64,000 nt of DNA from Paramecium sonneborni (Eukaryota; Ciliophora; Oligohymenophorea; Peniculida; Parameciidae), in NCBI GenBank assembly GCA_905182985.1, contig CAJJDN010000025.1, forward strand, positions 1 through 64,000, written 5' to 3'. Under the pieces are notes generated by a model. That model was given only the letters and a program-made list of their open reading frames with translations, was not told the origin of the DNA and did not search any database. Made by a program: the position numbers and the translations under genes. The first letter of the stretch is position 1, and every line of letters begins with the position of its first letter. Shown piece after piece: positions 14,360-21,042 of this stretch.

Positions 14360-14450
14360 TCAATTTAGTAGGAAATTTCTTTATATAATGTTGATTAATA
14401 CAACATGTATAATTAAAATTAAAAACAATTTAAGAAAAAATATTATAATA

Positions 14451-16041
14451 TCATTTATAAGAACTTAAGTCTTCGATTTATTTTTTAGCAAATAAAAGTC
14501 CGTTTTTCTCTAAAAATCTCTAAATTTATTTAATGTGATTGAGAAATTGTGGTTCTTTACTATTTTATGCTTATTCAATCTAAAAATTATTAATAAATCT
14601 TACAAATTATAAGATTGGCTTTATAATTGCTTCTGCTTCTTGTTTATCAAATTAAAGAAGTTTAGCTCTGATTAAAGCTTATAATAATAAATGATCCTGG
14701 AAATAGGCATCATCAATTTAATTTCTAAATTTCTCAAAATTTTCATAAATAACTTTTAATAAACCTTGTTAATCTTTGATATCAACTGGCAATTCAATTA
14801 TAACTTAAGCAGTTAAATGTAGTAATTATTCTAAATTTATTTTTTCTGAACTATTTTCTATAAGAATTAAAGCTTAATGTATATGTTCAGACAAAGCTTT
14901 ACTATAACCTTATTTAAAAGTGTATTCTATAGATAAAAGCAACACTTCTGATATAATAAAAGGATCTGTCACTCTAAAATTTTTCATAGTTTCAAAAAGT
15001 TTTTCATAATCTGCCTCATTTACTTCTTTTTAGGATTGAATAACAAATTTATACATTTAAACTAAAAGTAAGAATTCAGATTCTCCATATTATGAAATTT
15101 CATCATATAATTCTTAAATTAATTAAATAGATTTCTCATAATTTTCTTTTAAATAGGATCTTGCTATTCTACATTAGCATAAAATTGATTTAGGTGTTAT
15201 ACCGCTAGCAAAAGTTTCATAAATCTAAATTAGATTTCAATTAATACTTCATGAGCTTTTTCTAAAAATGATCTAGCTTCTTCCTCTTATCCAGAAATTA
15301 ATAAGAATTCAGCTAATATCTCAAAATTTCTAGCTATTTTACTCATAGCTTATTGTTTTCCAACTTAATATTTAATTTATTCAACATTCTCTTTATGTTT
15401 GATAATGTCATTAACAATTTTAACTGCTTAATCTAGACATTTAGTTGATTCTTCTAAAAATTGAACATAACCTTCTGGGTTTAAAGTTTTCTAATAGAAA
15501 GCCTTCATGTCAAAATATTAAGATTGCCTTAACAAATTGTTAAATTCAGCTTCGCCTAAATCACTTATTTTTGATTCAAAATTATATATGTTTTCTAATA
15601 TGCCTTTAATTCGCCTAATTTATATAATTTATTTTACTCTAACACTAATTCTAATAATTGTATTTCTCTTCTGTTTAATCTATAATGGTATTCCAATAAG
15701 GATAATTCCATTGAAATATTTAATATCAATTAAATCTTTTATGGATATTGTTTTGGAATATATAATCTTTCTATAAAGTTCTTATCGAACATTTCTTCAA
15801 AAAATTCCCAATTCTTATCTTATAATTCACTGCCAATCAAATTTTCAGCAAGATGGATTTTTTATAATACTTTCTAAATTGAAACTGAATTTTATTTGGG
15901 TTATGAAACTTTGTTATCCCAATATTCAACTAATTTATCAAATTCTTAATTTTTTAAGATTAATTAGGATGATCTATTTTAACTATTAATTTTACTCTTT
16001 TGCTAATTTGTTTTATTTTGAAAAGGAAAAGTAATAAACAT
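14451..16041 (-). CDS. Helical-repeat (TPR-like) protein
   Basis: 514 aa with two 23-base introns. The protein is almost wholly alpha-helical with short antiparallel helix pairs resembling tetratricopeptide repeats, for example ARNFEILAEFLLISGQEEEARSF and CRIARSYLKENYEKSIQLIQ read as A and B helices about 34 residues apart. The consensus small residues are only partly kept. No catalytic motif was seen. It lies 48 bp downstream of the ankyrin-exonuclease gene on the same strand. Ciliates rarely co-transcribe genes, so the closeness need not mean shared function. It could belong to a diverged TPR family such as those in intraflagellar transport or meiosis, but I cannot assign it. Confidence 0.6.
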
Positions 16042-16089: not shown

Positions 16090-18838
16090 TCATTAATATT
16101 ATGTTCTTATTATTCTAGAAATTTGCTTTTATATATTTTAATTAAGGCATTTATTAAATTCTGTTGTAATACAATTCCTTTGGAGCTTTCTAGAAAGAGC
16201 AGAAATATCAATCTTATTTATAATATTTATTAATAGATATTGTTTAATCAAACTCAACTTATGGCATTGATTAAACACTTTGGTGATTAAATTAGATTTT
16301 CTGCACTTAAAAATATATAAGGATTATTACTTCATCAATTAATATTGGGTATTAAAATAATAGACTATCTGAATCTAATCTAGCATAATCTATCACTTCT
16401 TTAGGTAGTGGTCTTATTCTCCAATCTGATCTTTGATATAGTTTATCTAAATGAATGTTCAAATGTTTTTTGCATAATTTTTCTAAAGATTAAGCATTTG
16501 GAGATTTAATTAAAGCCATATCAATCTTACTTGAATCTAATATTGATTTCAAAATTAATTTTAAATCACTAAATAGAATTATTATATCAACATCACAACC
16601 ATGAAAAATTTTTTATAATTCTTAATTTTCAAAAATAGGTTTTAAATATTTATTACAGATATGTCTAAATCTCATTGCATCTATTACATAATCTACATCT
16701 ATAGTAGATAATTAAATTGTGCAAATAAAAGCTATTTTATATTTATCTATTTTATCAATAAAATGTTCAGTATCTATTCCCACAACATTATAATTTTAAA
16801 TTAAATTATTCATACATTATTCTAATTGTTTTTCTGTTTCTACAACAATTAATTATTTTTTTGATTAAACCTCTTAATAATATTAGGGCATATTACCTTT
16901 GTTAATCTTGTAATTTTTTATGATTTTTCAAAAAATAATAGCTCTTTCTGAGTTAATTATGATATATCCGAAAACTATTTGATAAATTTATAATTTTTTT
17001 CTTCTTGCAATTAGATTTAAGGTAATTTTGTAACATGATCTAATTCAATTTAATAATTAATTAAATTAAATTTAAGTCCTTATTTAGAACCATAACTAAC
17101 AGAAATAAAGTTATCGAGCATTTAATAAATATCCATAAATCTATGAATAACAGCTATTTCAATAATTGTAGATGAATTTGTGTTTTAAAAGATTATAAAG
17201 TTATAAATATCAACTTTAGTAATCTATTTTAAAAAGTAATTCCTATAATTGCTATAAATATATTAATTATATGTCTAAGATGATCTAAATCATAGATTGG
17301 TTAAAAATGTTACAAGAAATATTTGATATATTTATTTTCTTTAAAACTTTTAGTAAGATTCATTAAAGATTAAAGAATTTCTTACAATTTAAATTTTGTT
17401 ATCTTTTCTAATTAAAGTAAATATGGTTTCATTTAATCTAATAAATATTGAAATGTTTCAAATTGATCATTTTTACTGCAATTTCCATAGCTGTGAATCC
17501 TTCATTTTCTAAAAGAAAATCTGCTTAATTTTCTATTAATAATTTAGCAGTTTCATAATGATTAAATTTAGCAGCAACAATTAAAGCAGTTTCTCCAAAT
17601 TTATTCCTACTATTTATATCACAACCAAATGCTATTAAAATAGGAATTGAACTTAATGCTTCACTTGATGCTGGTTCATATAATGGAGTATTTTCATCTT
17701 TATCTTTAGATTCCACATCAATTCTATGCTCTAATAATAATTAAGCAATTAAAGGAAGTCCCAATTTATCTTCCATCTCTACTACCTTTAGGATCAAATA
17801 CTGCATTATGTAATGCATTTCTTCCTAATTTATCTGCATAATTATCGTCTATATTAGGTTATTAAAGTAGATATTCAACCACATTATATAATCCTAAAAA
17901 ACTTGCTTTTGAAAATGGAGTTCTTCCCAAAGCTATTCTAGATTTATATTTGCACCTCTTTCTAATAAGAATCCTATTATAAATAATTAACCAAATGAAC
18001 ATGCATAATAAAATGGAGTTCTGTTTTAATTATCTTAGTGTTCTAAATTTACTTTTTATTTAAGTAAATATTCTATCATTTTTATAGATTCCCTTTTTAT
18101 AGCTTAAAATAAAGGAGTCATACCATCATTATCTTCACATTCCCAATCTACATTTTTATTTTATAAATATTCAGCATAATTTATTCTAGCATATTTTTAT
18201 ATACCAAATGAGGAACTAACGTTTTATCTTTCCTCTTTAAGAATTTTATAAATTGAAGCTCCTTTCTCAATTAAATCTTTAAAAACTATAAATTTATCAT
18301 CTTATATCGATTCAATCAATTCAGGATTGCTTTTTTATTCATTATTCTTCTATATTTATACTCTTTTTTCTTTTTTAGGTAAATAATTTGGTTCTATATT
18401 ATAAGTTATTTCAAATTTTCCCATGAAATCCTAATACCAACTATATAAACATGATATCTAAGGAGGTATTCCTTTTTTAATCACCCTATGAAAAATTCTA
18501 CTTTTGTGTAAAAAGCTAAATACCAGCAAATCTATTATTCCATATTATGTCAATTAATATTTCCTATATTATGGTTACATTTCTATCTCAAAATTTTTAC
18601 CAAGATAATTTTATAAATCTGAATAAGTACCAAACATTGAAAAAGTTTATTCTAATTAGAAAAAAAAAATAACATTACTTGCATATCCTTATTTATACTA
18701 AGTATAAATAATGTCCTTCCTAATTTTTATAATAAGCTAAATTATTTCATTTACTTTCTTTAAATCCTGAAAAACTTATTATACTGCTTGATAAGAAGGA
18801 ATATGTATGTGTAAATATATATCGAATTACATTTCCAT
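16090..18838 (-). CDS. Ankyrin-repeat plus RRP6-type DEDDy 3'-5' exonuclease fusion
   Basis: About 864 aa in a model with introns of 27, 23, 25, 29, 26 and 25 bases and one base missing from an A5 run (17470-17474 on the plus strand): 2749 - 155 + 1 = 2595 = 3 x 865. As printed, the frame shifts there. Residues about 1-120 are unassigned. Residues about 125-380 hold ankyrin repeats (GMTPLFQAIKRESIKMIEYLL; RTPFYYACSFGQ; GETALIVAAKFNHYETAKLL). After a helical linker, residues about 640-785 form a DEDDy exonuclease: Exo I VGIDTEHF (Asp646, Glu648), Exo II FHGCDVDIIIL (Asp706) and Exo III YARLDSDSLL (Tyr775, Asp779). The SDWRIRPLPKE motif just before Exo III is a hallmark of RRP6/EXOSC10. No HRDC domain follows. 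The two introns ending AATAG and TAGAG are unusual and could hide further errors. Likely RNA or DNA trimming guided by ankyrin contacts; this is inference. Confidence 0.8.
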
Positions 18839-19759
18839 TCAAAGTATGCTTTTAAATAATTAAAAATTTATAATAAATTATTTTTGAATGATTAAGAAAT
18901 ATTAATAAATATTACTAATTAATTCTTTTATACTTTTTTAGAATTTTATAAATTTTTAAAAACACAACAACATGATTTAAAAATATTTTATTCCATTTTG
19001 TATTTTATTAAATAATTGCTATTTATCTATTAAATCTACTGAAATGCCATTATTAAAATCAATAATGAAATAAAGATCTTTGGAGTTTGACAGAAATCTT
19101 ATTTACTATTAAAATTTATAATGTATTTTTATTGGCATTATAATCTACTTAAATATTATCATACTTTTGAATTAATTGTATTTTAAGTTTATAGATTTAG
19201 CAAATATAAGTTTAAAAAATAATATCAAATTAAGATATTTTAAAAAATAATTATTTATTTATATTAAGATATAAGTAGGAATAATATGAAGAATTATGAT
19301 TGAAATAATATTTGAATCTAAAATTAGGTTATATTTTAAATTTCATATTCAAATTACTGAAAAAAAAATTGAAAAATAATCTTATATTATAATTAGTGTA
19401 TAAATGATATTATAAAACTTAGATTATTTGCTCAATTTATCAGATCATGAATGATAAATCTGAAATATAAAACAATTTTTCCTATAATAAAAAAAGATTT
19501 TAATGATGCTAGTTGAAAATACTAAGCCTAAATAAAAACAAAATAATTAAATTAATAATCTATAAACATAACATATAATGAGAATTATATATAAAATAAA
19601 AAACATTAATTTTATTCTGATTGTCTTGTTATTATATAAATTTTAATTATTTCAAATTATTTCCCTTTGTTGCACACCATAATAGCGTCACTATAATTTA
19701 TATTTAAAGATTTTAAGGAATAAAAAATTAATCAAATCTTATATAATATTAATAAGAAA
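18839..19759. other. 0.9 kb divergent intergenic region
   Basis: A/T-rich sequence between the divergent starts of the exonuclease gene and the second arrestin-like gene. No coding frame or repeat seen. Confidence 0.5.
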
Positions 19760-21042
19760 ATGGGGAATAAACATAGCACTGAATTTGGTGGAATTTTCGT
19801 TGAGACTTCAAAAGCCTTTTATTTTCCTGGAGAAATAATTTAAGGTAAAATAATTGAGAAACATACTTCTAGGAACGATTAGTTTAAACATAACAAAACC
19901 TGGTTATCCTGGAAGAAGACTTTAAATAAGTGTTACAGGAAGAGAAATTTTACATGGTGCTTTAGATATAAATGATAATAGTGATGATGAAGATAAATTA
20001 TCAACGAATACAACTTAAAAAATAGTAAAGAGTGAAATAGTGCTTTATGAATTTCAATAACCAACTATACCAATGGGTTAATTTACAATTTAATTCACGT
20101 TCCAATTACCATAAAATATACCAGGAACCTACAATAAAATACATTTAAGTGGAGCTTATGAGAGAATCATATATAAAATAAAAGGGTCTATTGTAGCAAC
20201 CAAGGGATATAAAACAATGAGTCATATTTAATAAATATAGGTTAGAGAACCTATATATTATCCTGAATAATAGATTATTGGAGATGGAAAACTTAATGAT
20301 AATGGATATTGCTGTAGATAAAAAGGAGTAATAATTTTATTATTATAATTAGAGTGCATAAATTACTGCTATAACCGACAGAAATGTTTATAGAATTGGA
20401 GAAGCAATAAGAATTTTAATAGAGGTAATTGATGAAGAGAAATTTCAGAAACCAGAAAAAATAATAATACAATTGGAAAACATAACATAATATAAATATA
20501 AAAATAATAACATAGAAACAAAAAAAAAAATAATTACTGAAGAAGAGATTTAAACAACTACAAAAAAACTTGGTTCCTATAAAGTATTAAATTAACAAGA
20601 AGTAGTTCTATTTGCATAATTAAAAAATCATAATAATAATGATCAATATAATATGATTTAGCCAACTACAAATGGCAATATTATTAAATCAAATTATCAA
20701 ATTTTGATTAAAGCTAGCTTTGGAAGTAAAATATAATTTATTATAATTTCAGTAAGCTGTTGCAATTTAAGTGAATGTCTTGAATTGCCTATACAAATTA
20801 TTTCGTCTTCAGTGTTACAATAACAATCTATTTAGCCTCCATTAGGATGGAAACCAATCCAACTTAATGATGAGAATCTTTAACTATTAGCCAATGCAAA
20901 ATAAAGTGGTACCAGTTTGCATTCGTTTTCTACATATTAAAAGACTTTATAAGGAAGAAATAGTTATAATGAATAATAAGAATCATAAAGATCTATTAGA
21001 GTTGGAAATTCAATCTAATCTTTAAACTATTAAATGAATTGA
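19760..21042 (+). CDS. Arrestin-like domain protein, paralogue B
   Basis: 409 aa with introns of 28 bases (19845-19872) and 25 bases. It begins MGNKHSTEFGG, a good fit to the N-myristoylation consensus (Gly2, Ser6). The arrestin N domain reads YFPGEIIQGTISLNITKPG, then RRLQISVTGREI, an acidic loop (NDNSDDEDK), then GQFTIQFTFQLPQNIPGTY. A YCCRQKG motif matches WCCKNQG in paralogue A and precedes the second sandwich (ITAITDRNVYRIGEAIRIL). The first intron interrupts the same codon position as in paralogue A (after the Gly of the second strand), so the pair shares ancestry. The acidic loop and longer second domain are paralogue-specific. Confidence 0.8.

What the first reader, a model, noticed from the sequence alone, without database searches (positions are those of the whole stretch)
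16090..18838. Ankyrin array fused to an intact RRP6-type DEDDy exonuclease
RRP6/EXOSC10 proteins usually pair the nuclease with HRDC and PMC2NT domains. Here ankyrin repeats come first and no HRDC follows, yet all catalytic residues (Asp, Glu, Asp, Asp with Tyr in Exo III) and the SDWRIRPLP motif are present. Ciliates run extensive small-RNA and genome-rearrangement pathways that need 3' trimming, so a nuclease steered by ankyrin contacts could be a new player. That function is inference; the domain order is seen directly.
Basis: partly seen in the sequence, partly recalled or inferred. Interest (0 to 1): 0.75.

Follow-up and report, generated by a model that had tools for sequence, protein, structure and literature searches.

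The report
Broken copy of ankyrin-linked RNA nuclease
This stretch is a decayed duplicate of a gene whose intact twin encodes an unusual enzyme, an RNA-trimming domain joined to ankyrin repeats and, in relatives, to a docking domain otherwise known from protein-synthesis complexes; the enzyme family looks undescribed, but this copy itself cannot make the whole protein.

The parts
16208..18838 (-). Decayed copy of the ankyrin plus RRP6-type nuclease gene (homologous stretch aligned from 18838 down to about 16215)
   Evidence: (680 of 852 aligned codons encode the sister's residue, seven frame-breaking steps, 116 internal codons missing)
17429..18838 (-). ORF holding the N-terminal region and, broken by frame changes, the ankyrin repeats
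   Evidence: Pfam Ank_2 1.6e-31
16208..16891 (-). ORF of 227 aa with the whole DEDDy exonuclease domain, catalytic residues present; its C-terminal part differs from the sister because this ORF reads through the last intron
   Evidence: Pfam PF01612 1.2e-28; genome hit 16846-16340
18652..18678 (-). Intron of 27 nt at the same place as a 22-nt intron in the sister gene (splicing inferred, no RNA data)
   Evidence: sequence; (sister CDS rebuilt with this intron equals annotated P0002)
16306..16330 (-). Intron of 25 nt at the same place as a 25-nt intron in the sister gene (splicing inferred, no RNA data)
17262..17279 (-). Junction at which 116 codons of the sister gene (14 + 102) are missing and the frame changes
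16090..16207 (-).

Best explanation
The window holds a decayed duplicate (pseudogene, or one on its way) of a conserved gene. The intact twin on contig C16 encodes a 1026-aa protein: a diverged N-terminal domain, an ankyrin solenoid with a conserved basic glycine-rich loop, and a catalytically complete RRP6-type 3'-5' exonuclease without HRDC. The working enzyme is most likely a tethered RNA 3' trimmer: the nuclease cuts, and the solenoid and N-terminal domain fix it to a partner. Shown: the decay, the intact twin, domain content, conserved residues, an aaRS/EF1-like GST_C domain in 23 of 38 gathered relatives. Inferred: RNA as substrate, tethering, partner identity. I put about 0.85 on the pseudogene reading, about 0.6 on 'tethered RNA trimmer' for the family, and about 0.2 on docking to translation complexes.
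For: Frame breaks and deletions against an intact sister; sister CDS rebuilt exactly to annotated P0002; P. pentaurelia orthologue P0003, also 1026 aa, 81%. Duplicated syntenic block. Controls against assembly error: one neighbour matches in one frame over 1770 of 1793 sister codons; a second shows, between its probable ATG at 19760 and its stop, only 3- and 9-nt indels plus one 1-nt difference in an intron-like stretch. Window-unique replacements 98 against 35 for the sister, of 852 positions. Family. Nuclease type. N-terminal GST_C. Ankyrin loop.
Against: Pairwise dN/dS between the copies is 0.27 overall and 0.34 in the nuclease, so constraint lasted for much of the time since duplication. 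The nuclease frame is open with all catalytic residues. An open spliced path exists on paper. The 98 against 35 count may include a shared stem if P0003 is orthologous to the sister only. Several other sister ORFs are covered by two or three window frames, or not at all, which I did not resolve into introns or breaks. The P. sonneborni assembly is said to contain micronucleus-derived sequence (passage of PMC10195154). In Paramecium itself the GST_C profile is not significant on one sequence (4.3 bits; shuffles reach 11.6). The nuclease tree does not firmly unite the family (35/67; one group in 36% of bootstrap trees).
Confidence: 0.82

Rival explanations
1. The locus still makes a short nuclease-only protein from the open 227-aa frame (ATG at 16891), freed from the ankyrins.
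For: Frame open across the whole PF01612 domain with all catalytic residues; dN/dS in the nuclease 0.34, below 1.
Against: The nuclease has the highest dN/dS of the four large domains (the 16-codon C-terminus, 1.26, set apart) and 29 window-unique against 7 sister-unique replacements; a frame break lies just upstream (16923) and the sister's stop is lost; no transcript data were at hand, and no promoter scan was run.
Confidence: 0.1
2. The gene is intact and the frame breaks are removed by extra small introns.
For: With GT-AG introns of 18-40 nt a continuous path from 18829 to 16215 exists; Paramecium introns are very short (recalled).
Against: It needs six introns that the sister lacks, two of 39 nt and one of 19 nt; it removes or scrambles much of the ankyrin array and scores lower (2634 against 3372, penalties slightly different); the stretches taken as introns align with coding sequence of the sister.
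Confidence: 0.04
3. Assembly or sequencing errors break an intact gene.
For: Several breaks look like single-base differences, some in A-rich runs (sequence); the assembly is reported to contain micronucleus-derived stretches.
Against: A 116-codon deletion and a missing N-terminus are not base-call errors; two neighbours read cleanly over long frames, though others were not resolved.
Confidence: 0.06
4. One reading: a functional ankyrin-steered nuclease of ciliate small-RNA or genome-rearrangement pathways (applied to the intact sister, since this copy is broken).
For: Family present in Paramecium and Blepharisma, both ciliates with programmed DNA elimination (recalled); the nuclease is an RRP6-type 3'-5' enzyme by homology.
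Against: No expression, localisation or partner data; the N-terminal GST_C of relatives is closest to translation-complex proteins, pointing elsewhere; eight literature searches aimed at such a protein listed no paper on it (open-access library only).
Confidence: 0.1

Closest known systems
RRP6 / EXOSC10 (nuclear exosome exonuclease)
   Different: No HRDC or PMC2NT match in 38 gathered proteins; ankyrins and GST_C instead; the six RRP6 rows form their own group (99/96) and ordinary RRP6 genes coexist in the genome
RNase D
   Different: Much weaker by sequence (1.9e-5 against 5.6e-24 for RRP6); RNase D's HRDC domains (recalled) have no counterpart in the family
GST_C domains of EPRS, AIMP3/EF1 epsilon, GluRS, EF1 gamma, Arc1p
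   Same: The nine best solved sequences for the N-terminal family profile are EPRS (3.8e-12), AIMP3/EF1 epsilon (3.8e-8) and GluRS (8.2e-8); EF1 gamma 2.8e-6; Pfam Arc1p_N_like 29.1 bits, over its 27 cut-off, in P0250 and GST_C 21.3 over 20.7 in P0249
   Different: Fused to ankyrins and a nuclease; ordinary insect GSTs follow from 3.4e-7, before EF1 gamma; in Paramecium the domain is diverged and seen only by profile-profile comparison (94.9% probability)
RNase L (ankyrin sensor joined to an RNase)
   Different: RNase L has a pseudokinase and an unrelated endonuclease domain (recalled); ankyrin matches at that Z are generic, and other ankyrin proteins score higher

Membership tests
RRP6 / EXOSC10 | DEDDy catalytic residues with the RRP6-type Exo III motif | tested here: met
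   D, E, D, Y, D in 33 of 34 exo-bearing proteins, the other being cut short; RRP6 chains best by a wide margin. One branch has NWK[IL]RPLT instead of DWRIRPLP
RRP6 / EXOSC10 | HRDC domain after the nuclease | tested here: not met
   0 of 38 at E <= 0.01; tails after the last catalytic Asp are 45-94 aa in the 33 complete ones. Same-genome RRP6 genes match HRDC at 5.2e-5 and 6.3e-4, 23.6 and 20.1 bits, both under the cut-off of 23.8
RRP6 / EXOSC10 | N-terminal PMC2NT domain | tested here: not met
   No match in 38; but the same-genome RRP6 ORFs, not full gene models, also showed none at E <= 1, so the feature is weakly diagnostic here
RRP6 / EXOSC10 | Falls inside the RRP6 clade | tested here: not met
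   Six RRP6 rows are one group at 99/96; the family's own branch has only 35/67
RRP6 / EXOSC10 | Binds the exosome core | not testable with these tools
   needs biochemistry
aaRS/EF1-type GST_C domain proteins | GST_C domain nearest to synthetase-complex proteins | tested here: met
   For the family outside Paramecium; profile of 14 N-termini scores 57.9 bits or more in 23 of 38, nine of them not used to build it
aaRS/EF1-type GST_C domain proteins | Same domain in the Paramecium member | tested here: inconclusive
   Single sequence 4.3 bits, shuffles up to 11.6; profile of five Paramecium-like rows (two of them Paramecium) against the other 14: 94.9%, E 4.4e-8, which the three other rows may carry; model pLDDT 45-73 there
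aaRS/EF1-type GST_C domain proteins | Physical docking on a synthetase or EF1 complex | not testable with these tools
   needs pull-down
Pseudogene (decayed duplicate) | Disabling changes against an intact homologue | tested here: met
   control neighbours
Pseudogene (decayed duplicate) | Lies in a duplicated block | tested here: met
Pseudogene (decayed duplicate) | No functional transcript | not testable with these tools
   no RNA-seq at hand

The most novel reading that the evidence does not exclude
Ciliates, and perhaps other protists, keep an undescribed family of RRP6-type nucleases that work outside the exosome: a synthetase/EF1-type GST_C domain docks the enzyme on a translation complex, a solenoid of 15 or 16 ankyrin-like repeats with a conserved GGRxGKK loop holds the RNA or an adaptor, and the nuclease trims or destroys RNA 3' ends there, tRNA being the first candidate.
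Probability: 0.2. Interest if true: 0.8.

Novelty: new variant of a known kind. Interest (0 to 1): 0.45.

Why it matters
The window copy by itself is an ordinary relic of gene duplication. The family behind it is more telling: a nuclease of the RRP6 kind without its usual exosome-linked parts, joined to ankyrins and, in many members, to a domain otherwise used to assemble tRNA-synthetase and EF1 complexes. If it does dock there, RNA 3'-end trimming would be tied physically to the translation machinery, which can be tested by one pull-down in Blepharisma or Paramecium.

Tried and rejected
Reading the locus as one gene with extra introns: tried by dynamic programming and rejected as needing six introns absent from the sister.

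Reading it as intact with sequencing errors: rejected because of the 116-codon deletion, with two clean neighbours as control. Other neighbours were not resolved.

How the 38 proteins were chosen: all 34 with both domains among the listed rows (27 of 120 listed, which found 433; P0002, P0003, P0004, P0011 from the 120 listed of 387, where P0006 and P0008 also stand; P0125, P0146, P0148 from the 120 listed of 2267), plus four ankyrin-only rows that share the loop (P0248, P0255, P0259, P0273). The other ankyrin-only rows were dropped. So '34 of 38' is a choice, not a rate.

Rows dropped elsewhere: the tree took 34 family members, 6 RRP6 and 6 other P. sonneborni genes; the hits on C41, C44, C48, C27, C2, C1 and the window's own nuclease were left out. 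The conservation count used 31 of 38 rows.

Viral or prokaryotic origin: pattern scans of IMG/VR and of GTDB genome contigs gave 14 and 44 pattern matches, none confirmed by tblastn. A Foldseek search of viral models showed in its 50 listed rows ankyrin, poxvirus-type or unnamed proteins, none described as a nuclease; this does not exclude viral relatives.

RNase L-like sensing: RNase L stands in the fold lists, but general ankyrin proteins score higher, so I do not build on it.

Detecting GST_C in the Paramecium protein alone failed; only the profile-profile test supports it. The fold search barely tested the N-terminal part (note), so no fold evidence for GST_C is claimed.

Loop motif: my first pattern was written wrongly and matched 0 of 38; corrected, it matches 36 of 38 and 0 of 314 other session proteins. 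29 of the 38 came in through a search with a region of P0006 holding this loop, so the 36 is biased; P0002, P0003, P0004, P0006, P0008, P0011, P0125, P0146 and P0148 were found by full-length searches.

Literature: ten searches ran in an open-access library only; none listed a paper whose title or abstract start concerns an ankyrin-RRP6 fusion. Seen as passages: PMC2848206, PMC6431247, PMC10195154, PMC9670198; all others as search listings.

Full report
What the locus is. The window lies in a genome of 91.5 Mb (G000, contig C25). I read it as Paramecium sonneborni because a protein named so, P0002, sits on a contig of 820,478 bases, the length of C16 here. On the minus strand at 18838-16208 the ciliate code shows an ORF with ankyrin repeats and, after further frame changes, an open DEDDy nuclease. 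Pfam confirms both (Ank_2 1.6e-31, DNA_pol_A_exo1 1.2e-28).

It is not one intact gene. A genome search with the ankyrin part found a copy at C16:807145-807804 in one open frame. That copy continues through the nuclease; with two introns of 22 and 25 nt its CDS translates exactly to the annotated 1026-aa P0002. Aligned to P0002, 680 of 852 window codons encode the same residue. The alignment needs seven frame-breaking steps (two compensate each other), lacks 4 codons near 17756 and 116 codons at 17279-17262, has no match to residues 1-45 (leading residues were free to be skipped), and runs past the sister's stop. Both sister introns have counterparts in place (18678-18652 and 16330-16306). A version that forbids frame breaks but allows GT-AG introns of 18-40 nt finds an open path of lower score (2634 against 3372, gap penalties slightly different), with six introns the sister lacks and much of the ankyrin array lost or scrambled.

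Duplicate, not error. ORFs of window 5-50 kb match C16:781-818 kb over long stretches, with inversions. One neighbour matches in one frame over 1770 of 1793 sister codons. Another shows, between its probable ATG at 19760 and its stop near 21042, indels of 3 and 9 nt and a 1-nt difference inside a stretch that begins GTA and ends TAG in both copies, which I take to be an intron. Other sister ORFs are covered by two or three window frames, or not at all, and were not resolved. Pairwise dN/dS is 0.27 overall and 0.34 in the nuclease; window-unique replacements are 98 against 35 for the sister among 852 positions compared with P. pentaurelia. The last count is not a clean rate test, since the tree of the three is not fixed. 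The block probably stems from the P. aurelia genome duplication discussed in PMC10195154 (passages), but a younger duplication is not excluded. That paper also says that the P. sonneborni assembly holds micronucleus-derived sequence.

The family. Searching with P0002's ORF returned P. pentaurelia P0003 (81%, 1026 aa) and distant proteins with both domains. A profile search was swamped by ankyrin proteins; its listed rows added three. A search with an ankyrin region of P0006 listed 27 with both domains among 120 rows (433 found), two of them named Blepharisma stoltei, P0249 and P0270. I aligned these 34 and four ankyrin-only rows that share the loop; four of the 38 carry species names, all ciliates, and the rest are unnamed. 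All 38 match ankyrin, 34 match DNA_pol_A_exo1, none matches HRDC or PMC2NT at E <= 0.01. Catalytic residues are complete in 33 of the 34, and the last is cut short. The tail after the last catalytic Asp is 45-94 residues in those 33.

Nuclease kinship. The sister's nuclease finds 34 solved chains at E <= 0.01: the best 13 are RRP6/EXOSC10 (5.6e-24 to 2.5e-21), then a jump to 8.8e-14; RNase D 1.9e-5, EXD2 5.1e-5, mut-7 1e-4, WRN 0.0038. A tree of 46 rows puts family and RRP6 together apart from six other P. sonneborni DEDDy genes (82/92); RRP6 is one group (99/96) and the family's unity is weak (35/67, one group in 36% of bootstrap trees). So it is an RRP6-related line, not RRP6 itself. Ordinary RRP6 genes on C93 and C111 show HRDC (5.2e-5, 6.3e-4, both under the curated cut-off) and no ankyrin match.

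The N-terminal domain. Pfam finds Arc1p_N_like in 16 of 38 and GST_C in 3 of 38 at E <= 0.01, over the curated cut-off in P0250 and P0249 respectively. A profile of 14 N-termini finds as its nine best solved sequences EPRS (3.8e-12), AIMP3/EF1 epsilon (3.8e-8) and GluRS (8.2e-8); insect GSTs follow from 3.4e-7, then EF1 gamma (2.8e-6), p43 (1.3e-4) and AIMP2 (3.8e-4). These are parts of synthetase and EF1 complexes (recalled). The profile scores 57.9 bits or more in 23 of the 38, nine of which did not go into it. In Paramecium the domain is not detectable in the single sequence, but a five-row profile, two rows of it Paramecium, matches the others at 94.9%.

How it most likely works. Shown: domain content, conserved residues, kinship. 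Inferred: the intact protein is a 3'-5' RNA exonuclease acting without the exosome's RRP6 attachments, held at its place by the solenoid and N-terminal domain. Docking on synthetase or EF1 complexes, with tRNA 3' ends as substrate, is a guess from the GST_C kinship (about 0.2).

Novelty. Ten searches of the held open-access library listed no paper that, by title or abstract start, concerns such a fusion (eight were aimed at it); subscription papers are not covered. I call the family a new variant of a known kind, and the window copy a relic.

Noticed in passing
5300-50000: Duplicated block matching C16:781-818 kb with inverted segments; a rearrangement breakpoint lies just 3' of the decayed gene, whose downstream neighbour (about 14450-16040) has no match in the C16 stretch compared.
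   Followed up: partly
19464-21039: Plus-strand gene in two frames, possibly arrestin-like by eye (untested), intact against its C16 sister apart from in-frame indels and an intron-like stretch of 25 against 24 nt.
   Followed up: partly
G000 C44:17751-18188 and C48:14032-14445 (L016, L018): A pair of PF01612 hits (2.5e-11, 2.1e-10) that barely match the family profile (15.3 and 13.8 bits); identity not worked out.
   Followed up: no
P0270 (Blepharisma stoltei): The second Blepharisma copy has lost the usual GGRxGKK loop sequence while keeping the catalytic residues, which may mark a change of ligand.
   Followed up: no
P0278, P0280, P0281, P0285, P0286, P0148: A distinct branch of about 1300-aa members with NWK[IL]RPLT in place of DWRIRPLP and longer tails (88-94 aa).
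   Followed up: no
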